Assembly: GCA_000739535.1 (NCBI GenBank)
Contig: DF820479.1
Coordinates: forward strand, 108,452-142,186
Source: Candidatus Vecturithrix granuli
GTDB lineage: Bacteria > Moduliflexota > Moduliflexia > Moduliflexales > Moduliflexaceae
Reading direction: 5' to 3'
DNA length: 33,735 nt
Shown here: positions 1,029 to 24,718 of the stretch, one piece after another
Layout of the letters: each line of letters begins with the position of its first letter
Numbering within the stretch: the stretch's first letter is position 1
Made by a program: the position numbers and the translations under genes
The notes under the pieces: model-generated
The model's input: only the letters and a program-made list of their open reading frames with translations
Told to the model about the DNA's origin: nothing
Databases searched by the model: none

Positions 1029-2273
1029 ATGAGCGTTTTTTGGACAAATATTGATAAGCTGCAATTAGTGTGTATTTTCATCAGCAGTTTTCTGATTTCC
1101 CGGGTGTTGATCGTCGCCAAAATTCCGGAACGGCTGGTGCTATATTTAATCGGTAAAAAACATCTGCCGATCAGCACGATTATTTTTTACGTGATTTTTG
1201 CCTCGGCCCTTCTCTCGTTTTTTATTCCCAATGTGATCACGGTTTTGACTCTGCTGCCGATGATTAAAATTTTGCGCCGTATGTTTGAGGAATCCCTGCC
1301 GCATCGTTACAAAGCGCTGGAAACAATCTTTCCGCTATCCATCATCTATGGCGCGAATATCGGAGGAATGGGTTCAATTACCGGTACACCGGCCAATGGC
1401 ATTATGGTACTGTACGCGACATTTTACAAACTGCCAGGCCTGGAATATTTGAATTTTCAATACTGGTTACTATGGGGCGTTCCGCTGGTGCTTGTGTTTA
1501 TTCTGGCAGCCTGGTTTGTGTTGAGTGCGGCGTTTCGGTTGTGGACGTATCAGAATGAACTGGTCCAGGTCACATTCTCGGAAACCCAGGCGTTTCATCC
1601 GTTACAACGCACTGCCATCCGGCTGACTACCCTGTCTTTTCTGTTGTTTGTTCTGCTCTCGGTACTGATGAAAACGTCTGAAGCGAAACTTGGCGTGTTG
1701 TTCATCTCTGTATTTTTGACGCTTTTGTTGATCGTTGTTTTATTTCTGATTCCGTTGAGAGGTAACCATGGCGGAACGTCGGGGCGTTTGTTGACAATTC
1801 GTGATTGTTATAGCAATCTTCCCTGGCGCGGTCTGGTGTTTGTGGGCGTTATCCTGGTAATTCTCGGCCTCGGCGCGCTCCTGAATCTGGAAGAGGTGAT
1901 TATGCGGTTTTTTGAGCGGATGGTGCGCGTGAATATCCCCGCTTCCTTGCTCTTTCCGCTTATTGCGCTGTTAACGTCGTTTTCCACGGAACTTTTCAGC
2001 AATACGGTCGTACAAGTGGCGATGTTTACCGTTGTCGCCCGGCTGCTTGGCGATTCAGGCCTGATTGCATTTCACGCGTTTCTGATCATTACCTTATCCT
2101 GCACCAATGCCTTTATGACGCCGATTGCGACAGGCGTTAACGGCTTGGCGTTTGGGGAAATGAAGGGGATTTCGCTTTCGACGATGCTCATAGCCGGTTT
2201 GTTGATGAAATTGTTCGGCGTGGCAATTATCGCCTTTGGAACGCCGTTGCTTGTGGGCTGGGTCTTATCCTAG
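1029..2273 (+). CDS. SLC13/DASS-type anion permease
   Basis: A 414-residue polytopic inner-membrane protein, with about ten to eleven hydrophobic segments, of the divalent anion:sodium symporter (SLC13/CitT, ArsB/NhaD clan). Two inverted structural repeats are recognisable: the first substrate/sodium-binding loop is GANIGGMGSITGTPAN at about residues 113-128 and its partner is TNAFMTPIATGVNG near residue 360. The conserved PNVITVLTLLP segment is also present. Family members move dicarboxylates, sulfate or other anions; the substrate cannot be read from this sequence. In the reading frame a TGA lies directly before the ATG, so this start is firm. The ribosome-binding site is weak, and the preceding small frame ends six bases upstream. 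The protein is somewhat shorter than many 450-600-residue relatives. Confidence 0.82.
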   Translation: MSVFWTNIDKLQLVCIFISSFLISRVLIVAKIPERLVLYLIGKKHLPISTIIFYVIFASALLSFFIPNVITVLTLLPMIKILRRMFEESLPHRYKALETIFPLSIIYGANIGGMGSITGTPANGIMVLYATFYKLPGLEYLNFQYWLLWGVPLVLVFILAAWFVLSAAFRLWTYQNELVQVTFSETQAFHPLQRTAIRLTTLSFLLFVLLSVLMKTSEAKLGVLFISVFLTLLLIVVLFLIPLRGNHGGTSGRLLTIRDCYSNLPWRGLVFVGVILVILGLGALLNLEEVIMRFFERMVRVNIPASLLFPLIALLTSFSTELFSNTVVQVAMFTVVARLLGDSGLIAFHAFLIITLSCTNAFMTPIATGVNGLAFGEMKGISLSTMLIAGLLMKLFGVAIIAFGTPLLVGWVLS

Positions 2274-2327
2274 TCCTGTTCGCCCCGACCTCTCTCAGGC
2301 GAAAATTTTCAGTCAGCAGGCATAAAA

Positions 2328-2412
<85 letters not shown>

Positions 2413-2431
2413 TTGTCTTACGACGGAACAC

Positions 2432-2460
2432 ACCATAAAAAAAACTGGTGTTCATGTCAA
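2432..2460 (-). promoter_or_regulatory. Sigma-70 promoter of tRNA-Leu
   Basis: On the minus strand TTGACA (2455-2460) is separated by exactly 17 bases from TATGGT (2432-2437). Transcription would start about 12 bases before the mature 5' end of the tRNA at 2412. A perfect -35, standard spacing and correct position make this convincing. Confidence 0.75.
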
Positions 2461-2761
2461 TAAAAAAATCACAGACCTTGCTGATTTTTGTAAAATTTCC
2501 TGTATTATCGGATATGTACTCTGGTATGCCAGAGTTTCTGCGAGTTTTCTTCTGATAATCTCAAGGTAAAACTTGACATTTCCTACTTGGGCAGAAAACC
2601 TTTTATTCAGAGCTTAGCAGATGAAAATGTGACATTGACATGTAACAAAATACCAAATTCGTTCTACATTTCCCAAAAAGAGACCTGTTTCTCTAAACGA
2701 ATACAGTAGTATTTTCAAAAAATTTTTTACGATACCGCTAATCGGGGATCAGAATCATATT
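2461..2761. other. Intergenic region before tamB
   Basis: Three hundred bases between the tRNA promoter and tamB, AT-rich and without a credible gene. It holds a perfect 7-bp inverted repeat, ACTCTGG-TATG-CCAGAGT, at 2518-2535, which could be a regulator site. Two TTGACA hexamers (about 2574 and 2635) have no good -10 at standard distance. No strong ribosome-binding site precedes the tamB ATG; a GGGGATC lies rather far upstream. Confidence 0.4.
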
Positions 2762-5700
2762 ATGCTGAATGTGTTCAAAAAATTTTTGCTGTTCACCGTG
2801 CTCGCGCTCGTTGTGCTGCTGATTGCTGCCACGCTCGTATATCGCAGCTTTTTTGCTCAAAAAGTCGATCTGTATCTGACGCAGAAAATTCAGAGCGTGC
2901 TTGCGCAGCAATTACAGCGCGAAGTCTCAATCGGAAGCGTACATCTCAGCTTTCCTAACCCGAAGATCGTGATTTCCGATATTGCGATTGCCCGAGAACA
3001 GCAATTATCTGAAGGTTTGCTTTTAGCAGCAAAATCGCTGCAAGCGAGAGTCTTACTCCGCAGTCTCATCTCAAAATATCTTCTGATTGACAATATTATT
3101 CTGGATTCCCCTTTAATCTGGGTTGAATTTGACGAACAGGGACACTCGAATTTACCATCTTTTAAGGGGGAAGAAAAGGAAGAAGAACCTGAGTCTCGTT
3201 TTCGTCCTGAACGGCTGGTGAATCGTTTATCGTTTCCGCACATTCAACTAATTGATGCCCAAATCTATTTTGCTCACCGCCAAATTCCACTGACGGTCTC
3301 TGTTGAACGCCTGAATACCACTGTTTCGTTTGCCCTGGAGGGATTGCGCGTACAGGGCAGCATTGCGCTGGAAGGCGGGGAAATCGAGTATCAGGATCGA
3401 GAGAAAATCACAACGGCTTTTTCAGGAAATCTGGATTTTTATGAGAATACCCTTTCGCTCTCATCTTTCCGTTTGAAAGCCGGAAGTTCGGAATTGACTC
3501 TTGATGGCACAATCGCAAATCTCAGCCAGCCAGACCTGAATCTGGCTGTGTTGGCTGACCTTTCCCTGGATGAAATCGATCGTTTTGCGCAGATCGATCA
3601 AAATCTGAGCGGCAGGGCAGCTTTCCAGGGCGCGGTGACTGGCGTGATTTCCGATATTCGTGCCAACGGGCATCTCAGGTGCGAACAAGGCACGGCCTGG
3701 AAACTCGCGTTTAACGATCTCAACGCCGATTTGCGTTATCAGGAAAGGCAGATTGACATCGCTAACCTAGCGGTCGCTTTATGGGATGGCCGCGTGACTG
3801 GCAACACGACACTGTCTTTTGCGGGTCCGCCGCAATATATGGCTAAAGCTACGCTCAACGGTGTCAATATTCACTACGTGAATACCTTGCTGACAGAGGA
3901 ATTAGACCTAGCTGGCGTCTTGAGCGGTGATGTAGATGTCCGTTCCGATAGTTGGGGTTTTGAAGATTTGGTGCTCCAAAGTACCGTTGAATTGAACGAG
4001 CTTGAGGCTTATGGCGTCAGTGTTCCTCATCTCAACGCCCAGGTAGATATCCAACGAAAAACTCTATCTATCAAGGATCTCGATGCCAAAATTTTTCAAG
4101 GAACCGTCAGGGGCGGAGGTACGCTCGAACTTTTTTCAGATTTTCTCTATCAGGCGAAACTTGATTTGGAGAAAGTCGAGTTAACGCCGATCATGGCTCT
4201 GATTCCTGAGCCGCCCGATGTGGCCGGACAGGTCAGCGGAACCGTTGCAGCGCAAGGCTCGCACTTTGATCTGCCGCATCTGGCCCTCAACGCCGATCTC
4301 GCGCTTACTAACCTGGACGCCTACGATATTCAATCTCCATCCCTGAGTACTAAAGCTCGTATTCAAAACCAGATGCTCTCCATTGAGTCGCTATCTGCCC
4401 AATTATTCGGGGGCAATATTTCCGGCTCTGGAACACTAGTGCTGGCCGGGAGCACAACGCCTGTCTTTGAGACAAAACTTGCTTTGCAAGAAATTTCCGC
4501 TCAGAAGGTGATGCAGCAATTTGCCGTTCAGAAGACCGATTCAGGTGTTGATCTGCGCGGCAGTATTTCCGGGAAGGTGCAAGGCTCCGGGAATTCCTTT
4601 CAGCTCAATGATCTTCGCGCTGAGGCTGCACTCAAAGGCACTGGCGACATTCTGATCGCAACGAACCCGCAAAATACAGCTATTCCATTTCGCCTGGACT
4701 TACAAAGTACACTCAAAGAGGGAACGCTTACCCTGACCACACTGATGGTTGATTCTGCGGCGCTGCAACTAACGACCAGTGGCGCACTCAAACTGATCGA
4801 GCCGGAATTTGATCTGACTTATCAGATCGCATCAGAAAATGTCGAAACCTTGTTGAAGCAGGTGATGCTCTTTATCCCCGGTTTGGATGACACTTCCCCT
4901 CTGGCGAAGTTCCGCGGGAAAATCGAAGAACTTAAAGGTACACTTTATGGCCCTCTGAACAACTTAACGATTCAGGCGAAAGCGCAACTGAAAAAGGCAG
5001 ATTTGGTCTGGATCAAAGCTGATACTTTGAGTACTGAGGTCAATTACCAGGGAACGATGCTCACGATCTCGCACTTGCAAGCTGCTTATAACACGACGGA
5101 AATCAGCGCCAGCGGAACGATTGACTTGGCAAATCCGTCCGACCCACAGTTTCACCTGCCGGTCGCGCTGCAAGCCGGAAAAGTAGCAGATTATCTGGCA
5201 ATGGTTAAACAGGATCTTCCTATTAGTGGACAATTACAACGCATTGAGACAATTGTAAACGGGTCTGCCAGCGATCTCAAAGTCGCCCTTGCACTTCAAG
5301 TTACAAAAGGCGCAGCCTGGGAGCAGAGTTTTGATGCTTTGACCGGCGATGTTCAGCTTGCAGAAAACCGGATTAGCCTTTCCTCCGTGAAACTCAAGAA
5401 GAATGGCGGAACGATCACGGCGAACGGATTCTTTGATTTCGATATGTCCTTCCAGGCGCAGCTTTCCGGCTCGAATCTGGATTTGCACGATATTGATGCG
5501 CTGAAAACTATGGCAATTCAATATGAAGGCAAAGTGGATCTGACCGCGCAGGTTGAAGGCACGTTGCAAGATCCGCACGGCAGCGCTGGCGTCGTGTTGA
5601 AAGACTTGAGCTACAACCAGAATCCAATCGAAAATGTGACCTGTGATATTTCCATGCAAAATCAACGCCTGCATGCCCAACTTACAACCTTCCGCCAAAA

Positions 5701-10516: not shown

Positions 10517-13225
10517 TTACGTCGCTGTATATAAGTCTTTTGTGGTCACGGCGATCGTATATTTGACGTCCAGAGGCTGAAACAGGGCAAAGTGCTTTGC
10601 GCCGCATTCGATTTTGAGGCGTTCAACCTCTCGAAGTAATTGGCGGTTCAGGCTGCCTTTGGTTTCAGCCACAAAATACACGCGCCGGTCGTGTTCGAAA
10701 ATTACCGCCCAATCCGGGGTGTAGTTCCCGAGGGGCGTCGGAATCTTGAAGCCGCGCGGCAGTTTAAAGAAAAATTTGATGCGCTCATCAGCTTCGCAAT
10801 CACGGGCAAAATCGCTTTCAATCGCGCTCTCCACCGCAATGTAATTGAAGAGCGTTTTTTCCGTTTTTGAGACGGCAAACAGACTGCTGAGATAGGTTTC
10901 AATTTCTTCATAGCGAAACAGCGTCATTTCATAGACCTGCCCGTTGATCTGCTCATATTTCAGCCCTTCGACCATCAGACTGTACAGTGTGCGTTGAATC
11001 GCGCTGACCACGTTATCCAAAAACAACTGCGGGTTGATTTCCAATTCTTCATAACGCTCCGACTGTTTCAAAATTTCGAAAATCGTGCTGCGGGTAATAT
11101 CCACCTTGCTTTGAATATAGGCATAAATATCAGGAATCTGATAGCGGACGGCCTGACTCTGTTTGACGCTCAAATCGGTCAACGCGCCCTCAATCCCTGC
11201 TTCAGTGTAGTTCAAGCGGGCGGTGCGCGATTCTAACATCGGGCGCGTGGTCAGCGGAACTTTGTTGAAATCGCGCAGTTCAGCCACGGTGCGGGTGATC
11301 AGTTCCGCGGTGCTGAATTGCACGTGGTAGCGGGTGCGGTGTTTGATGCGATCCCAGATTTCGAAAAACAACGGGCAATTTTCAGGCGTCAGTTCTTTGC
11401 TGAGGCGAATTTTGGCCCTTGCGCGGGCATTTTTGATTCGGCCGCCAAAATCAACACTGGTCTCTTCCTGAATTTCGCGCTGCAAGGCGGCGGAAAAATC
11501 CTGATAGGTTTCATTGGCAATCACAGTGAGCAGGTTGAGACGTTTATCCTGAACCCGCACGCCGCTCTGGTCAACCGACAGACGCAGCCCGCGTCCGATT
11601 TCCTGGCGTTTTTTCAATTCGCTCTGACTTTCGTTCAGAGTGCAGATTTGAAACACATTCGGATTATCCCAGCCTTCCCGCAATGCGCTGTGGGAAAAGA
11701 TGAATTGCAGCGGCTCGTCAAGGCTCAGCAAGCGTTCTTTGTCTCTCATAATCAGGCTATAGGTCTCGTCGTCCGCTTTGGTGCTGCCGGTCGTATCTTT
11801 GAACGCCCCTTTTTTATCCTGCGAAAAATAGCCGTTGTGTACTTGCTCAACGGGAAAGGGCAGGAGATCGCGGTATTCCGGCAGATTGGCGCAGCGCTTG
11901 AAAGCCTCTTCGAACCAGAGCGCAAATTTGCCCTTTTGCGCATGACCGTCGGCGGTATAAAGGCGGTAATGAGCGACTTTATCGAGAAAGAACAGGGACA
12001 AGACTTTGACGCCCGAGGGCTTGAATTTCTTGACTTTCTCAAAGTGCCACTTAACGGTGCGTTCAATCTGGTATTTCATGACCTCATCGGTCAAACCGCC
12101 CCGGGTTTGCCCGGTTCGCAACACCATTCCATTGGCAAACTCGATCATCTCTTCGGCCGCGTTGATGCTATTCAGGATAAAGCCATCTTTATAGATTTCG
12201 CGTCCGCCAGACAGCCGAAACAAATCCGCGCCAGCGTCAACTGTGACGGTTTTGGGTTTGACGCTCTGTTTGTCATTGACATAGATTTCCAATCTGGCTT
12301 TTAAGGTCGTTTTTCCGCGCTGCACGCCTTTGAAACGGATAAAGGCGGCGTTGTAATTGCCATCGGCCGTAATCCCGTCAACCTCGATCTGCTTGACCAG
12401 TCCCAAATCATACGCTTGCACTGGATTCAGACTATACACCAGGTTATATAAGTTGCGATGCGTGGCGGAATAGCGCAGCGTGCAGAGCGGGTTCAGATGA
12501 TGGATCGCGGCCTTGCGAATATCGGTTTCCATGTTCTGCGGTTCATCCACAATCACGATCGGGTGCGTGGCTTGCAGGTATTCAATCGGCTTGACGCCGG
12601 TTTCCCGCACAGTGTTGATAATGTTGGCGTCTCGGGTGAAACTGTCAATATTGATGACCAGCACTTGAATGGCGTTCGACGTTGCAAAGTTGCGCAAAGC
12701 CGCTAATTTCCGGCTGTCGTACATCAGAAAATTGATCGCCGGGCAGCCGTAAAGGGCTTGAAAATGGTCATGGGTAATTTCCAGATTTTTGACCGCGCCT
12801 TCGCGGATCGCCACACTGGGCGCGACGATCACGAATTTTTTGAAGCCATAGACCTTGTGCAGTTTGTAAATTGTACGCAGATAGACGTAGGTTTTGCCGG
12901 TGCCGGTTTCCATTTCAATCGTAAAATTGAGCGGAATTGATTGTTTTTCCCCGGTTTCCGCGTCGGCATAATCGCATGGCTCTAACTGCTGCGAGAGATG
13001 AAGATGATTGTGCTCCTGCACAGCGCGGACGTTGCGCAGCAATTGGCTTTCCGTGAGGCTCAGCCGGTTGGCAACCCCTTTTTCCGACAGGGACAGGCTC
13101 GCGCCCTCCATCCCGAAAGAGATTTCAAAATCCCCTCCGTGCAAGGGCTGCCCTTCGAAAATGTCCACAATCGCCTGAATCGCCGCAAGCTGGTAGTCCT
13201 GAGAACCGTCAAATTGCAGTTTCAT
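10517..13225 (-). CDS. res: Type III restriction enzyme, Res subunit (helicase-nuclease)
   Basis: A 902-residue Res protein: with the Mod subunit it forms the type III complex that translocates or slides on DNA using ATP and cuts when two unmethylated sites meet. Superfamily 2 motifs are clear: motif I METGTGKT at about 105-112, motif II DEPQ at 227-230, motif III SATH at 253-256, and motif VI QEIGRGLRL in the middle third. The C-terminal PD-(D/E)XK nuclease is present, P837-D838 and E854-T-K856. The frame is open to 13306, but the start is placed at ATG 13225, four bases after the stop of the upstream gene, because the homologous part begins MKLQFDGSQ. No ribosome-binding site is visible, so translation is probably coupled. 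Res is separated from mod by two genes, which is unusual. Confidence 0.92.
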   Translation of the reverse strand: MKLQFDGSQDYQLAAIQAIVDIFEGQPLHGGDFEISFGMEGASLSLSEKGVANRLSLTESQLLRNVRAVQEHNHLHLSQQLEPCDYADAETGEKQSIPLNFTIEMETGTGKTYVYLRTIYKLHKVYGFKKFVIVAPSVAIREGAVKNLEITHDHFQALYGCPAINFLMYDSRKLAALRNFATSNAIQVLVINIDSFTRDANIINTVRETGVKPIEYLQATHPIVIVDEPQNMETDIRKAAIHHLNPLCTLRYSATHRNLYNLVYSLNPVQAYDLGLVKQIEVDGITADGNYNAAFIRFKGVQRGKTTLKARLEIYVNDKQSVKPKTVTVDAGADLFRLSGGREIYKDGFILNSINAAEEMIEFANGMVLRTGQTRGGLTDEVMKYQIERTVKWHFEKVKKFKPSGVKVLSLFFLDKVAHYRLYTADGHAQKGKFALWFEEAFKRCANLPEYRDLLPFPVEQVHNGYFSQDKKGAFKDTTGSTKADDETYSLIMRDKERLLSLDEPLQFIFSHSALREGWDNPNVFQICTLNESQSELKKRQEIGRGLRLSVDQSGVRVQDKRLNLLTVIANETYQDFSAALQREIQEETSVDFGGRIKNARARAKIRLSKELTPENCPLFFEIWDRIKHRTRYHVQFSTAELITRTVAELRDFNKVPLTTRPMLESRTARLNYTEAGIEGALTDLSVKQSQAVRYQIPDIYAYIQSKVDITRSTIFEILKQSERYEELEINPQLFLDNVVSAIQRTLYSLMVEGLKYEQINGQVYEMTLFRYEEIETYLSSLFAVSKTEKTLFNYIAVESAIESDFARDCEADERIKFFFKLPRGFKIPTPLGNYTPDWAVIFEHDRRVYFVAETKGSLNRQLLREVERLKIECGAKHFALFQPLDVKYTIAVTTKDLYTAT

Positions 13226-13229
13226 GTTT

Positions 13230-13895
13230 TTAGTGTAAATAGTTGAGCTTGCGGTATGCCTGCCGGACGGCTTCTTTGAACTTTTGATACGCCGCAAGCT
13301 GTTCAAGTTTTTCCAACTGGATTTTTTGACCCAGGGGTTGATATAATTCTGCGATATTTAATTGATGTCGCCTTCTGGCAGGGATATCCGCTCGTCCAAG
13401 ACGAATTGCTTCTTCAATCGCCTCTTTGGGTCTGGCGTAACTTTCCGGTTTTTTGGCAATTCCTAGCTCATGCGCACTTTTGGATGTGCCAATTTCACGC
13501 CTCAGCAAATCTATGTCGGCAAGCATCCAGGCTTCAGTCATTTGGACTGGCACAATCGCCGCCAAATTTTTACAGACCTCTGCTCGCATTTGTTGAACGG
13601 CTTCAAACGCGGGGATAATTTTATACGTCAATGCGTTGCTATCATTTGCCTCATCCGCATCGGCATGAACGCACAAGACCATAATACCGTGTTCAAACGA
13701 AGTTTTGGCATATTCCAGCACCAGGTCAACAAAATCTTTTCCCGTGATTTTTTTTAACGACTGAACCGGTAAAACTTCGATAGAACTCTCACATTCAAAC
13801 GCCACTTCTTCAAAAGTCCGTTGAATGATGCTTTCTAAGAAACGAACATCGGTTGTCCCTTCTGTGGCAAATCCAATCATAATTTGTGGAATCAT
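13230..13895 (-). CDS. TOPRIM-type DUF4276-like protein, partner of the adjacent AAA ATPase
   Basis: A 221-residue soluble protein resembling the DUF4276 group of small TOPRIM proteins. Visible TOPRIM features are the acidic N-terminal motif with E12 (FATEGTTDVRFL) and the HADADE motif with D79 and D81. In OLD nucleases and their relatives these residues bind metal for phosphodiester chemistry. Its ATG overlaps the ATPase stop (ATGA), and res begins four bases after its own stop, so the three are one translational unit. By analogy with RloA/RloB and with PARIS (AriA ATPase, AriB TOPRIM effector), it is a candidate nuclease effector released or activated by the ATPase. The family name is moderately sure; the effector role is inference. 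Confidence 0.65.
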   Translation of the reverse strand: MIPQIMIGFATEGTTDVRFLESIIQRTFEEVAFECESSIEVLPVQSLKKITGKDFVDLVLEYAKTSFEHGIMVLCVHADADEANDSNALTYKIIPAFEAVQQMRAEVCKNLAAIVPVQMTEAWMLADIDLLRREIGTSKSAHELGIAKKPESYARPKEAIEEAIRLGRADIPARRRHQLNIAELYQPLGQKIQLEKLEQLAAYQKFKEAVRQAYRKLNYLH

Positions 13896-15343
13896 CGCAG
13901 TTCCTCAATGGCTTTCTCGGCATCGGCGGTTTGCAGGTATTGAATGACTTCGGCAAGGGTCAATTTCCGTTCCTGTTCAGTAAACTGTAACACCAGTTGC
14001 GAGGCGTGTTCTTTGATAACCGGTAAGATTTTACTCACTCGCAATTTGATTTTTTTCCGTGTTCCCGGGCAAACTCGTTGATCGTTTTTCGCCTTGTTTT
14101 CGATCAAATCTTCGACCTGAGTGATGAGCGTCGAGATTTGCGAGAACCAGAGGCTTACGTTCGGGTCCGTTTTCCAGAGACTGATCTGTTTCACCAAAAC
14201 CGGCGAATGCGTATTCACAATCACTTGACGCAAAGGCATTGATGGATTTGTAAAATCTACTGAAAGGTCTTTGAGCAGATGCGCCATTGTTTCGATGCGG
14301 AAAGGATGAATGCCATTTTCAGGCTCTTCGAAGCACAGCAGACCGATGTGCTGCGGATCATACTGAAAAATACAGAGCGCCAGCAGACGCAACGTGCCTT
14401 CAGAAAGCACCCGGGAGGAAAACTCGCGCCCATCTTCCCCGCGTAATTTGATAATAAATTGTTTGTTCGCTTGATCATCATACACCAGAACATCCGTAAA
14501 ATTAGGGAGAAACTGGTTCAGTGTGCGTGAGATTGCTGTGAGAGCATATTCGTCATCTAATTTGAGGCGGTATAACGCCGCTGCCAAATTTTTCCCGCTT
14601 TGGGTAATGGTATCATGCATCCCGATGTCCTGACGAGTTGGCTCGCGCAAATCCGCAGGGTTCAACTGCAAAAACTTCCACCTCCGCATTTCTTCCTTTG
14701 CTGCGAAGGCATGAGGAAAATCTATGGAGTTGATTCCTCCAAGAACGGTTTGACTGATAGCGTTTGCAGGAGTCGCTTTTCCTCCCTGTCTGCCATCTTG
14801 CCGGATTTTAATTGTCGGAATCTCATTTTGCGTGTCCGTATAAATAAAAGGTTTCGGAGATCCCCCGCCAGTTGGCGCGTGCCATAGTGTACGCAAACTT
14901 TTCGGGATGATATTTTGACACCAGGCATCATCAGTATTTCTAATTTTCGCCAAATATTCGTATGCGATAAATAAATCATCGAAACCTTTCTCATTCCGGC
15001 GACGTTGGATGATTAACTCATACCGCAAACGGGGATATTTGAGTTCGGCTTCGCCGCCCCAATTATCTTTGACTGTCCGATTAACCAGCATGTCAACCAC
15101 AAATGACATTTCATCTGCATACCATTCTTCGCCGTATTGCGTAAACAGTTCGTTTGCGCTCCCACGCTGTTCGTTAAATGCGGTTTTTAAATCCGTCTCA
15201 GCCAGGCGCGCCAGGAGTTGCAAAGCATCGAACACGTTGCTTTTTCCGGAGGCGTTCGCTCCAGCGATCACAGTTAGTGGAGTGAATACCATTTCAAAGT
15301 TGTGAAAGGATTTGAATCCATTGATTTTCAGATAGGTAATCAT
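13892..15343 (-). CDS. OLD/RloA-like AAA ATPase (AAA_21 type, SMC/ABC-like)
   Basis: A 483-residue ABC/SMC-like ATPase. The N-terminus MITYLKINGFKSFHNF leads into Walker A GANASGKS at 28-35; the signature LSEGT is at 313-317, Walker B LLCFEEP at 335-341, and the H-loop NTHSP at about 377-381. The open frame extends to 15373, but those extra residues fall in a hairpin repeat and the family starts at the ATG at 15343. The last part of the protein is helical and acidic, unlike an OLD TOPRIM domain; the TOPRIM function is instead on the next gene, which overlaps by four bases. This split architecture is that of RloA-type and AriA-type defence ATPases. It follows mod by 69 bases and has no visible ribosome-binding site. 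Confidence 0.85.
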   Translation of the reverse strand: MITYLKINGFKSFHNFEMVFTPLTVIAGANASGKSNVFDALQLLARLAETDLKTAFNEQRGSANELFTQYGEEWYADEMSFVVDMLVNRTVKDNWGGEAELKYPRLRYELIIQRRRNEKGFDDLFIAYEYLAKIRNTDDAWCQNIIPKSLRTLWHAPTGGGSPKPFIYTDTQNEIPTIKIRQDGRQGGKATPANAISQTVLGGINSIDFPHAFAAKEEMRRWKFLQLNPADLREPTRQDIGMHDTITQSGKNLAAALYRLKLDDEYALTAISRTLNQFLPNFTDVLVYDDQANKQFIIKLRGEDGREFSSRVLSEGTLRLLALCIFQYDPQHIGLLCFEEPENGIHPFRIETMAHLLKDLSVDFTNPSMPLRQVIVNTHSPVLVKQISLWKTDPNVSLWFSQISTLITQVEDLIENKAKNDQRVCPGTRKKIKLRVSKILPVIKEHASQLVLQFTEQERKLTLAEVIQYLQTADAEKAIEELR

Positions 15344-15351
15344 GTCTAAAA

Positions 15352-15411
15352 CCACAGCTTTCTCAGATTCCACAGATGAAAAATAATCTGCGAAATCTGA
15401 GAAAGCTGTGG
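15352..15411. repeat. 60-base hairpin repeat between mod and the AAA ATPase
   Basis: Arms 15352-15377 and 15386-15411 are complementary at 24 of 26 positions around an 8-base loop. The hairpin begins two bases after the mod stop codon and ends eight bases before the ATPase ATG, so it fills the whole gap. In the mRNA it would be a strong stem placed where a ribosome-binding site is expected. It may stop part of the transcripts, stabilise the mod message, or block the ATPase start. No T-run follows, so a simple terminator is less likely. Confidence 0.8.
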
Positions 15412-15412
15412 C

Positions 15413-17299
15413 TTAAATAATTTTCAATTCCACGCCGGCTTCGTGGAGTTGGAGTTTGGCGCTGCTCATGGTTTCGTCCGGGTTGTCGCCGGTAAAGAGG
15501 CTGCTGAGGGTCACGAAGCGCATGGGTTTGGCGGCGGCGACGTGCTGAAACAGGGGCAGATTGATACGCTCTAAGGCGATCCACATCGCGCCGTCAGCAA
15601 TATCGTAAATTTTGCAGCCTTCAAACAGCCGTTCCTGCACGTCAACCGAAAGCGGAAATCCGGCTTTCAGGCACAGTTCCGTCAACAAAGCTGCGTCGCT
15701 GCCGCGATATTCAGAGAGCGGTTCGCGCAACAGGGCCATCTGGGCTAAGAGCGCGTCTTTGCCTTCCACATCTCTGCGCCAGATTTTGAAGTTGCTGTAA
15801 TCGAGGGTATAGGCTTTGAAGCCCAAATCCGGCTTCTGGCCGCCGAAATCTAATTCGGTTTGCTGTTCTGCCGCTAATTTGGCGATGACTTTTTTGATGC
15901 GCGCGGTGCAAATATCGGCAATGGTTTTGTAGCCGGCTTTATAGGCTTCGCTGTTTTCGTCTAAGGCTTCAGGCAGTTGCACGAGGATAAAACGACGATT
16001 GCCGCCGTCTTCCTGGTTGAGTTCTAACACGGCTTGTGCAGTGCTACCGCTGCCCGCGAAGAAGTCAAGGATAATCCCAGAATGATCCTCCGTATCATTG
16101 ATCTGAATTTTGAACAGTTCTTTCAGGAGTTTAGCCGGTTTAGGGAAACCGAATAGACTGCTTAATTCAAGTTGTGATAACTCTTTCGTGCCATCTTGCG
16201 TATAAATCTTATCAATCACTGAAATAGGGGTACTCTTTTTATAATTGTCATATTCATCTTTCTCATATTGTTTATACCTGACACTAAAACGACCATTATG
16301 TTCTGTTATGACGATTTCATTATTTGCAAGGGCTTTCTCTACGCGATCTTTTGACCAAAGCCATTGTTTTTTCGGCCATAGCTCTTGCCCGTTCCATAGA
16401 ATGGGAAATTTTAAATTAGGTCTGTCATCCATACTCGTTGTCTCAAGCGGCCAGGTACCATAATATCCTCTTTCAGCAAATTTTTCATCTTTTTTACTGT
16501 ACATCTTTTTAGCTTTATTGGTCATCGGAATAGAAATGCTTCTAATGGCATCGAAATTTTTGGCATACACAAGGATATATTCATGACAAGTGATATAATC
16601 GCGTGGTTTTGCTCCAGCTCCAAATTTACTTTTCCATACGATTTGTTCTACAAAATTTTCCTCTCCAAAAATTTCATCCATCAATAACTTGAGAGTCGCA
16701 GATTCGTTGTCGTCAATCGAGACGAACATCACGCCGTCTTCGCGCAGCAAGTTGCGGGCTAAATACAGGCGCGGATACATCATGCTGAGCCATACGCTGT
16801 GGAACTGGCCGTTTTCTCTGCTGTTTTTCTTCCACAGGTCGTGTTTGTTCAACAGGCCATGTTCGTCGATAATGCCTGCCCGTCGTTCGTAGTCGGCGCG
16901 GTGTTCGGCGTAGTCATCGGGATACACAAAGCTGTCGCTGCCAGTGTTGTAGGGCGGATCAATGTAGATCATTTTGATCTTGTCGAAATAGGATTTTTGC
17001 AGCACGCACAGCACTTCCAAATTTTCCCCGGCGATGAAGATATTGTCAGATGACTCGAAGTTGACGCTGCGTTCCGGATCCGGCGTGAGCGTGGCGGTGG
17101 TCTGTTTCTGGATTTCGCGGCGGGCTTCCATTTTCCCGGCCCAACTCAACTCATAATGTTCATTGCTCACGAACACTTCTTCGCCAAAGGTCTGACGCAG
17201 GCGTTCCCAATCAATTTTGTCTTCCGAAAACACGTCCGGGAACAATTGTTTCAAATCTTTCAGCTTTTCTATCGTGATATTCAAGCTTTTTCCGTCCAT
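15413..17299 (-). CDS. mod: Type III DNA methyltransferase, Mod subunit (beta-class N6-adenine)
   Basis: A 628-residue Mod subunit that recognises the target and methylates adenine at N6 using S-adenosylmethionine; Res needs it for DNA recognition. The catalytic motif IV DPPYNTG is at 114-120 and the AdoMet-binding motif I FAGSG at 414-418. The order IV before I defines the beta class. The segment of about 150-400 between them contains the target-recognition domain, which sets specificity and cannot be predicted here. ATG 17299 has a strong AGGAGGAT seven bases upstream. No simple-sequence tract suggesting phase variation was seen. It is the first gene of a mod-ATPase-TOPRIM-res operon. Confidence 0.93.
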   Translation of the reverse strand: MDGKSLNITIEKLKDLKQLFPDVFSEDKIDWERLRQTFGEEVFVSNEHYELSWAGKMEARREIQKQTTATLTPDPERSVNFESSDNIFIAGENLEVLCVLQKSYFDKIKMIYIDPPYNTGSDSFVYPDDYAEHRADYERRAGIIDEHGLLNKHDLWKKNSRENGQFHSVWLSMMYPRLYLARNLLREDGVMFVSIDDNESATLKLLMDEIFGEENFVEQIVWKSKFGAGAKPRDYITCHEYILVYAKNFDAIRSISIPMTNKAKKMYSKKDEKFAERGYYGTWPLETTSMDDRPNLKFPILWNGQELWPKKQWLWSKDRVEKALANNEIVITEHNGRFSVRYKQYEKDEYDNYKKSTPISVIDKIYTQDGTKELSQLELSSLFGFPKPAKLLKELFKIQINDTEDHSGIILDFFAGSGSTAQAVLELNQEDGGNRRFILVQLPEALDENSEAYKAGYKTIADICTARIKKVIAKLAAEQQTELDFGGQKPDLGFKAYTLDYSNFKIWRRDVEGKDALLAQMALLREPLSEYRGSDAALLTELCLKAGFPLSVDVQERLFEGCKIYDIADGAMWIALERINLPLFQHVAAAKPMRFVTLSSLFTGDNPDETMSSAKLQLHEAGVELKII

Positions 17300-22853: not shown

Positions 22854-22902
22854 AGAGTGCAAAAACCCTGCTTTTGCATTGAAAGCAAGGCTTTTGCACT
22901 CT
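22854..22902. repeat. Inverted repeat of the GAGTGC family, copy 2
   Basis: Two roughly 22-base arms (AGAGTGCAAAA...TGCTTT and its near-complement) with three differences form a hairpin in the gap between the transporter end (22910) and the solute-binding-protein start (22656). The arms match copy 1 at 10465 and the half copy at 31837. It may act as a terminator for the transporter gene. Confidence 0.7.
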
Positions 22903-22909
22903 GGAATGT

Positions 22910-23860
22910 TTACACCTGACACAGTTCCGATGGTTTATATACCGGTTCCGTTTCTTCAACCTGGAGATTGCTGATTTTGTAAATTGCGAAGACCATGGCC
23001 AGGGCGCTGACCCATTGCACAGGGCTGAGCACGCTGCGATTGATCAGATAATCGAAGAGTACGGCCGAAACCGGAAAACACAATTCGGCCATGGTCGAGA
23101 CATTGGCTTTGATGTAGCGTAAGCCATAGTAATAAATCAAAATCGCCCCGCTGCCGGTTGTCAGGCCGATAATCACAAAAAATGTCCAGTTCACCGGAGT
23201 AGTTTTGGCAAGCTGATCGAATTTGCCGGTAAAGAGGACGAAGAACAGCATGATGATTGCTGTCAGGCCATAACGATAAAATAAGGCCGTCTTAAAGGAG
23301 ACCTTATTCAACACGCGTTTGCCAAAAACGGTTGCACTGCCAAAGGAAAACGCAGCGAGTAACGCATAACCTGCCGCTGGCAGCATTTTGCCGCTATTCA
23401 CCAGGGAGGGTAAATGAAACTCAAAGGTTAGAAAATAGCCGCCGATAAGCGCAATCCCGGCCCAAAAGGTGAAATTTCTGCCAATCCGTTCTTTAAGCAA
23501 TAAGCGTGCGAGCAGGATCGCGAAAACAGGTTGCAGCTTTTGCAGCAGCGCTACCACAGTTAAATGCTTAAATTCGACGATAAAGAGAGCTTTGACAATC
23601 GCCAATGTTCCCAATGCGCCGCCGAAGAGGGCGATCAGTACGAAATAGATCATGTCGCTTGCGTTCAAGGTCTTTACCGTCTTATATTCACGAAACAGAA
23701 TGAAATTCATGCCGAAAAATGGCAAGGCATGCAGCATAAAGACCACATACCCCACATCCAGGTTCCAGAGGCGCGGAGTCAGCACCACGCCGTCAAATCC
23801 CCACATTGCCGCTGCCAGACAGACCAGAAACACACCCAGGTTCGCTTTATTCTTGAACAT
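22910..23860 (-). CDS. EamA/DMT-family transporter under FMN riboswitch control, probable riboflavin importer
   Basis: A 316-residue inner-membrane protein with about ten transmembrane helices in two EamA repeats. The first begins NLGVFLVCLAAAMWGFDGVV and the second GYALLAAFSFGSATVFGKRV; the conserved LQKLQPVFAILLARLLLKERIG segment closes repeat one. The DMT superfamily moves metabolites of many kinds. The substrate here comes from its leader: a complete FMN riboswitch with an intrinsic terminator precedes the gene, and known FMN-riboswitch-controlled transporters import riboflavin. Relatives described with this role are RibN and the RFN-controlled ImpX. A GAGGAG lies upstream of the ATG at 23860. 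It is monocistronic as far as can be seen. Family certain; substrate inferred. Confidence 0.85.
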   Translation of the reverse strand: MFKNKANLGVFLVCLAAAMWGFDGVVLTPRLWNLDVGYVVFMLHALPFFGMNFILFREYKTVKTLNASDMIYFVLIALFGGALGTLAIVKALFIVEFKHLTVVALLQKLQPVFAILLARLLLKERIGRNFTFWAGIALIGGYFLTFEFHLPSLVNSGKMLPAAGYALLAAFSFGSATVFGKRVLNKVSFKTALFYRYGLTAIIMLFFVLFTGKFDQLAKTTPVNWTFFVIIGLTTGSGAILIYYYGLRYIKANVSTMAELCFPVSAVLFDYLINRSVLSPVQWVSALAMVFAIYKISNLQVEETEPVYKPSELCQV

Positions 23861-23940
23861 ATCCTTTTTTCTCCTCTACTATCCGTGTAGAACGAATTTT
23901 TTCATTCACACACACAAGGCAGATTCGGTCCCTATGTGCG

Positions 23941-23957
23941 TCGAAATGCAATTTCGA
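23941..23957. repeat. Small palindrome in the transporter leader
   Basis: TCGAAAT-GCA-ATTTCGA, a perfect 7-bp inverted repeat between the riboswitch terminator and the transporter ATG. It could be a short REP-type unit or a further RNA hairpin in the leader. Confidence 0.4.
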
Positions 23958-23961
23958 TCTA

Positions 23962-23997
23962 CAAAAAAAATGCCCCGTATAGGGGAATACGGGGCAT
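23962..23997 (-). terminator. Intrinsic terminator of the FMN riboswitch
   Basis: On the minus strand an 11-bp stem ATGCCCCGTAT/ATACGGGGCAT (23987-23997 with 23970-23980) closes a 6-base loop and runs straight into eight T. It stands 20 bases after the aptamer and about 100 bases before the transporter gene, as in transcription-terminating FMN riboswitches. Confidence 0.9.
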
Positions 23998-24016
23998 CCA
24001 TGATTAAAAGCCTCAC

Positions 24017-24144
24017 ACCAAAAAATCTTTATCCCCTCCAGACTTTGACTGTCGGTTCCGGAATTTCACCGAATCAACTGCATTGCAGCTCGCGGACTCT
24101 GACCGCCGGTCGGGAATTACACCCTGCCCCTAAAGATTTTTGGT
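24017..24144 (-). promoter_or_regulatory. FMN riboswitch (RFN element)
   Basis: Read on the minus strand this is a canonical six-helix RFN aptamer. The P1 stem pairs 24131-24144 with 24017-24031. The conserved blocks follow in order: GGGGCAGGGTGTAATTCCCG, ACCGGCGGT, AGTCCGCGAGC, TTGATTCGGTGAAATTCCGG, ACCGACAGTCAAAGTCTGG. When FMN is bound, the downstream terminator is expected to form and shut off the transporter. The element is far from any rib biosynthesis gene in this window. No anti-terminator pairing was worked out base by base. Confidence 0.96.
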
Positions 24145-24343: not shown

Positions 24344-24718
24344 ATGGACATTCAACAGGGCGATGTGTATTGGATTGATGAAGATGTTCCCTATGGTTCA
24401 GCGCCCGGATATCGTCGGCCGTGCGTGGTGGTTCAAAATAATTTTTTTAATCATAGTCCGATTGATACGGTGATTGTGTGCGCGTTGACCACCAATTTGC
24501 GGCGTGCCAAAGCACCGGAAAATGTGTTGCTCAGGAAAGGGGAAGCCAATCTTTCAAAACAAAGTCTGGTGGTTGTTTCCCAAATTCTGACTGTTGATAA
24601 GCGTGAACTCGTCGAAAAAATCGGGACACTGCCCCGACAAAGGATTCAGCAGATTCTGCACGGTCTGCGCATGTTAACAGAGCCAGTACGACATCAGTAT
24701 AAAGGTTATCGGAAATAG
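24344..24718 (+). CDS. MazF/PemK-like endoribonuclease toxin, no antitoxin visible
   Basis: A 124-residue MazF/PemK-fold protein. Members cut mRNA or other RNA at short sequences and are normally held by a MazE-type antitoxin. The N-terminal GDVYWIDEDVP, the catalytic-arginine region GYRRPCVVVQN (about 22-32) and the ALTTNL strand with the conserved Thr are present, as is the C-terminal QRIQQILHGLRMLTEP helix. A strong AAGGAGG precedes the ATG. No antitoxin-like frame exists in the 200 bases upstream, and the next gene downstream is a radical SAM protein, so it is an orphan or a housekeeping-type PemK. Its last codons and stop lie inside the left terminal repeat of the element at 24706-24895, so the native C-terminus may have been different. 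Confidence 0.85.
   Translation: MDIQQGDVYWIDEDVPYGSAPGYRRPCVVVQNNFFNHSPIDTVIVCALTTNLRRAKAPENVLLRKGEANLSKQSLVVVSQILTVDKRELVEKIGTLPRQRIQQILHGLRMLTEPVRHQYKGYRK

What the first reader, a model, noticed from the sequence alone, without database searches (positions are those of the whole stretch)
22910..24144. FMN riboswitch controls a DMT-family transporter: probable riboflavin importer
The aptamer, an 11-bp terminator with eight T and the transporter follow in order on the minus strand, with no rib gene nearby. DMT riboflavin importers (RibN, ImpX) are sparsely described, and the riboswitch gives a direct substrate hint.
Basis: partly seen in the sequence, partly recalled or inferred. Interest (0 to 1): 0.65.

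Follow-up and report, generated by a model that had tools for sequence, protein, structure and literature searches.

The report
Riboswitch-controlled vitamin B2 importer
An uncultured sludge filament bacterium that has apparently lost the genes for making vitamin B2 (riboflavin) carries one FMN-sensing RNA switch in its genome, in front of a membrane protein that is very probably its riboflavin importer; the protein type is known, but it had been reported only in bacteria that can still make riboflavin themselves.

Summary
A strong FMN riboswitch aptamer (RF00050, 110.6 bits) at 24140-24022(-), an intrinsic terminator with an 11-bp perfect stem and T8, and an EamA/DMT gene (316 aa, 23860-22910) follow in order. 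The window lies in 'Candidatus Vecturithrix granuli' UASB270: G000 has the same total length (8,384,694 bp) and scaffold number (21). This is the only FMN riboswitch found there. The assembly lacks recognisable RibH, RibB, RibE and RibA but has RibF, as expected of a riboflavin auxotroph. Homologs (52-64% identity in Fusobacteriaceae, 62-70% in Desulfobacterota) repeatedly have an FMN riboswitch upstream. In three Fusobacteriota genomes the gene sits between an FMN riboswitch and ribH-ribD-ribE. The predicted fold is DMT; the best solved match is the choline importer LicB. The riboflavin-importer reading is well supported, though not shown biochemically. It is most likely ImpX-type, but the F. 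nucleatum ImpX sequence could not be fetched, so formal membership is untested. The noteworthy point is context: two published surveys report ImpX only in prototrophs. Here, in nine near-complete RibH-less Fusobacteriota genomes, and in 29 of 33 Bacteroidota assemblies carrying the gene, it occurs without RibH.

The parts
24022..24140 (-). FMN riboswitch aptamer (RF00050), full length
   Evidence: cmscan 110.6 bits, E=3.7e-25, model 1-138; MFE fold gives the closing stem and five inner hairpins
23968..23999 (-). Intrinsic transcription terminator of the expression platform: 11 bp perfect + 2 G-U, loop of 6, T8
   Evidence: z = -5.0
24125..24133 (-). Candidate antiterminator strand inside the aptamer (UAGGGG / GGGGCA), complementary to CCCCUA or UGCCCC of the terminator; inferred only
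   Evidence: 6-bp match not beyond chance in the window alone (p about 0.2), but analogous matches in L051, L035, L036, L064, L153
22910..23860 (-). EamA/DMT-family transporter, 316 aa, proposed riboflavin importer (ImpX-type)
   Evidence: PF00892 E=3.3e-31; AlphaFold pLDDT 91.3 with a DMT fold; homologs in rib operons and behind FMN riboswitches
22855..22901 (-). Terminator after the transporter gene; separates it from the family-5 solute-binding-protein gene at 22656-20977
   Evidence: 20 pairs counted, 8 G-C

Best explanation
A single-gene transcription unit in Ca. Vecturithrix granuli. A FMN riboswitch senses cytoplasmic FMN. When FMN is high the aptamer is stabilised and the terminator at 23999-23968 forms, stopping transcription. 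When FMN is low an alternative pairing of aptamer G-rich segments with the terminator lets RNA polymerase continue into an ImpX-type DMT transporter, which brings in riboflavin; RibF then converts it to FMN and FAD. Because the genome lacks recognisable RibH, RibB, RibE and RibA, this importer is probably the cell's main or only supply of flavin. Shown here: riboswitch, terminator, gene, predicted fold, absence of rib genes in the assembly, rib-operon and riboswitch linkage of homologs. Inferred: ligand response, antiterminator, substrate, direction of transport, sole-source role.
For: RF00050 at 110.6 bits and the only one in the genome. Terminator z -5.0. RibH/RibB/RibE/RibA absent while the same profiles ring in 14, 14, 11 and 10 of 14 control genomes, and RibF present at E=3.5e-47. 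The same-family genome G001 also lacks all four, whereas order-level relatives G002 and G003 have RibB, RibE and RibA. The only PF12822 (ECF S-component) hit in the genome is a PF07456 protein, not RibU-like. Riboswitch-transporter-ribH-ribD-ribE order in F. gastrosuis (L151), Fusobacterium sp. S17M (L150) and G103 (L152). FMN riboswitch just upstream in Propionigenium, Psychrilyobacter and other Fusobacteriota, a Desulfobacteraceae MAG (69% identity) and SAR324. DMT fold with the choline importer LicB as best match, TM 0.74. ImpX of F. nucleatum complements an E. coli riboflavin auxotroph (PMC4418817).
Against: No biochemical test. The F. nucleatum ImpX sequence could not be fetched for comparison. 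Many close homologs (Desulfoluna, Cetobacterium, most Bacteroidota) have no FMN riboswitch upstream, so the substrate need not be uniform. The closest homolog carriers (Desulfobacterota) keep RibH. Absence of rib genes rests on a metagenome-assembled genome (93.8% complete as listed; 99.0% by its authors' revised estimate); rib genes often cluster, so one gap could remove several. RibD was not searched.
Confidence: 0.85

Rival explanations
1. The transporter exports flavins or moves another flavin-related compound (FMN, lumazine, roseoflavin-like analogues) rather than importing riboflavin.
For: DMT proteins include exporters (the YddG structure 5I20 is among the matches; a weak NCBIfam YddG hit for the F. 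gastrosuis homolog). Direction cannot be read from sequence.
Against: Genes behind FMN riboswitches are typically switched off at high FMN, which fits import or synthesis, not export (established knowledge). The host lacks biosynthesis genes, so an exporter would be self-defeating. The best structural match is the importer LicB.
Confidence: 0.07
2. The transporter has another substrate and the riboswitch was placed in front of it for an unrelated reason, as may be so for the FGGY-kinase genes found behind FMN riboswitches.
For: Three Fusobacteriota genomes have a second FMN riboswitch away from ribH; in the two whose downstream gene was read (G078, G082) it precedes an FGGY kinase. Many transporter homologs lack the riboswitch.
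Against: The homolog is inside rib operons in three genomes. Riboswitch linkage recurs in separate parts of the tree (at least 5 changes forced by well-supported branches). All nine RibH-less Fusobacteriota genomes of at least 95% completeness carry the gene.
Confidence: 0.08
3. The transporter imports riboflavin, but the organism is not an auxotroph: the rib genes are missing from the assembly or too divergent to be found. (This rival concerns only the sole-source part and is compatible with the importer reading.)
For: The genome is a metagenome assembly at 93.8% completeness, and rib genes often cluster. Two published surveys found ImpX only in prototrophs.
Against: Four enzyme families are absent from 8.38 Mb with sensitive profiles; the same-family genome G001 also lacks all four; the authors' revised completeness is 99.0%.
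Confidence: 0.15

Closest known systems
ImpX (Fusobacterium nucleatum; FMN-riboswitch-linked riboflavin transporter, PMC4418817)
   Same: FMN riboswitch ahead of a monocistronic transporter gene; the family found here is widespread in Fusobacteriota (63 of 98 genomes with a strong match).
   Different: ImpX was reported only in genomes with the biosynthetic pathway; here the pathway appears lost. The prototype sequence was not compared. Some Fusobacteriaceae genomes (G077-G083) lack a close homolog, so identity with the F. nucleatum protein is not proven.
RibN (Rhizobium leguminosarum riboflavin transporter)
   Different: Reported only in Proteobacteria; no RibN sequence could be compared here.
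RibU (ECF S component, PF12822)
   Same: FMN-riboswitch-controlled riboflavin importer; a probable example with its ECF genes was seen in G116.
   Different: Unrelated family, energised by an ECF ATPase; no RibU-like protein was found in this genome.
LicB choline importer (7PAF)
   Same: DMT fold, best structural match, TM 0.74.
   Different: 20% identity; different substrate; its regulation was not compared.

Membership tests
FMN riboswitch (RF00050) | Score above the gathering threshold over the full aptamer | tested here: met
   110.6 vs 66.2 bits, model 1-138
FMN riboswitch (RF00050) | FMN-dependent control of transcription or translation | not testable with these tools
   Terminator present; ligand response not measurable here
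DMT superfamily (EamA) | Two EamA repeats and the DMT fold | tested here: met
   PF00892 in two stretches; AlphaFold pLDDT 91.3 and Foldseek matches to LicB, YddG and SLC35
ImpX | Orthology to F. nucleatum ImpX | not tested
   The sequence could not be fetched; no hit with the published primers in the fetched loci
ImpX | FMN riboswitch upstream, usually monocistronic | tested here: met
   same arrangement in homologs
ImpX | Occurrence with the riboflavin biosynthetic pathway (a reported distribution, not a defining mechanism) | tested here: not met
   RibH, RibB, RibE and RibA absent from the assembly
ImpX | Riboflavin transport activity | not testable with these tools
   Needs complementation or uptake assay
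RibN | Sequence orthology to RibN | not tested
RibU | PF12822 S-component sequence | tested here: not met
   The protein is EamA only; the one PF12822 hit in the genome is better matched by PF07456

The most novel reading that the evidence does not exclude
An ImpX-type secondary transporter can serve as the only flavin supply line of bacteria that lost riboflavin synthesis, in at least three phyla (Modulibacteria, Fusobacteriota, Bacteroidota), against the published rule that ImpX and other facilitator-class riboflavin transporters occur only in prototrophs.
Probability: 0.5. Interest if true: 0.55.

Novelty: new member of a known kind. Interest (0 to 1): 0.4.

Why it matters
It gives a specific, testable vitamin requirement for an uncultured wastewater filament (riboflavin in the medium). 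It also points to auxotrophs living on an ImpX-type transporter. A 2015 survey called the absence of this transporter from auxotrophs 'intriguing' (PMC4418817) and a 2019 gut survey repeated the pattern (PMC6593275); the genomes listed here make that rule directly testable.

Tried and rejected
Primer sites of F. nucleatum impX from PMC4418817 were searched in all fetched loci: no match. The second FMN riboswitch in G078 and G082 was read in the hope of finding the F. nucleatum impX; it precedes an FGGY kinase. Viral contigs gave no relatives. PDB sequence search gave no meaningful relative. The antiterminator pairing was tested against shuffles: not significant for the window alone, so kept as inference. 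Fisher test of transporter against RibH absence in Fusobacteriota: p=0.12 at 90% completeness or more and 0.02 at 95% or more, and the RibH-less genomes are related, so it is not used as proof. Vitreschak 2002 is not held. A 111-row tree did not finish its careful search and was replaced by a 69-row tree without the longest branches.

Full report
What is there. On the minus strand the window holds, in order, a full-length FMN riboswitch aptamer (24140-24022; 110.6 bits, threshold 66.2), an intrinsic terminator (23999-23968; 11 perfect pairs plus two G-U, T8; dG -20.8, z -5.0) and a 316-aa EamA/DMT gene (23860-22910). A second terminator (22901-22855) ends the unit before a separate solute-binding-protein gene.

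Where it is. The assembly G000 has 8,384,694 bases in 21 contigs. Both numbers equal those of 'Candidatus Vecturithrix granuli' UASB270 in Table 1 of PMC4312070, a minor filament of anaerobic bulking sludge (phylum Modulibacteria/KSB3). The identification rests on that coincidence of exact figures.

Riboflavin metabolism of the host. The riboswitch is the only RF00050 match in the genome. Profiles for RibH (PF00885), RibB (PF00926), RibE (PF00677) and RibA (PF00925) find nothing, while RibF (PF06574) is present at E=3.5e-47. Genome G001 of the same family also lacks RibH, RibB, RibE and RibA; order-level relatives G002 and G003 have RibB, RibE and RibA. G001 has no transporter homolog, so how it obtains flavin is open. 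The authors of the assembly give a revised completeness of 99.0%, the genome index 93.8%. Riboflavin auxotrophy is thus likely but not proven. A PF12822 hit elsewhere in the genome (34.7 bits) is a PF07456 protein (137 bits), not evidence of RibU.

The protein. AlphaFold with 41 sequences gives pLDDT 91.3; Foldseek places it among DMT transporters, with the choline importer LicB first (TM 0.74), then the triose-phosphate translocator, YddG (5I20) and SLC35 proteins. In a 69-row tree the window protein groups with Desulfobacterota and Zooshikella (98/95), next to Fusobacteriaceae; nearest is a Desulfosarcinaceae MAG at 70-72% identity. Since the same-family and order-level relatives searched lack it, lateral acquisition is likely; gene sharing between KSB3 and Desulfonema has been proposed (PMC6390638).

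Function from context. In Fusobacteriota 63 of 98 genomes carry a strong homolog. Others have a riboswitch-transporter unit like the window's, as do a Desulfobacteraceae MAG (L064, with a terminator) and an SAR324 MAG (L093). A distant homolog (28-30%) in G055 also has one. On the tree, well-supported branches force at least five gains or losses of the riboswitch. This repeated linkage is the best evidence for a flavin substrate.

The prototroph rule. PMC4418817 (2015) and PMC6593275 (2019) report ImpX, and the latter all facilitator-class riboflavin transporters, only in prototrophs. Here the nine Fusobacteriota genomes of at least 95% completeness without RibH all have the transporter. Eight of these nine have no PF12822 match, and the ninth (G122) has only a below-cut-off match with stops. 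They belong to few related genera, so the association is not statistically independent. Of 33 Bacteroidota assemblies carrying the gene, 29 lack RibH (counted); their completeness is not given and no matched control could be run. The Desulfobacterota carriers all have RibH.

Mechanism. The fold of the leader shows aptamer and terminator together, the expected FMN-bound state. Candidate antiterminator strands (UAGGGG or GGGGCA in the aptamer) can pair with the terminator; similar matches occur in L051, L035, L036, L064 and L153, and in L064 the aptamer base change A to U is matched by U to A in its terminator. For the window alone the match is not beyond chance. The switching step is inference.

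Membership. DMT and RF00050 membership are met. ImpX membership is likely but untested against the prototype, whose sequence could not be reached; some Fusobacteriaceae genomes lack a close homolog, so it should not be assumed.

Verdict. The gene is a new member of a known kind; the interest lies in its presence as the apparent sole import route in a genome without riboflavin synthesis.

Noticed in passing
window 10517-17299 (-): Type III restriction-modification genes (mod 15413-17299, res 10517-13306) with an HEC-01-like ATPase plus HEC-01B/DUF4276 gene pair nested between them.
   Followed up: partly
L142 (G078) 1238-2788 (-) and L144 (G082) 1348-2886 (+): FMN riboswitch directly ahead of an FGGY sugar-kinase gene in Fusobacteriota; G077 has a similarly placed riboswitch whose downstream gene was not read. 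PMC4418817 mentions a similar case in Clostridium ljungdahlii, unexplained.
   Followed up: partly
L147 (G155) around 1004-1115: A weak FMN riboswitch (76 bits) just ahead of a gene row that looks like a substrate-binding protein, outer-membrane-like protein, permease and ATPase of an ABC importer; possibly a flavin uptake system.
   Followed up: no
L145 (G116): FMN riboswitch ahead of a complete ECF operon (S component, two ATPases, T component), probably RibU.
   Followed up: partly
window 24344-24718 (+): PemK/MazF-like toxin gene (PF02452) divergent from the riboswitch; no partner antitoxin was looked for.
   Followed up: no
G001 (same family as the window's genome): Lacks RibH, RibB, RibE and RibA and also lacks the transporter; its flavin source is unknown.
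   Followed up: no
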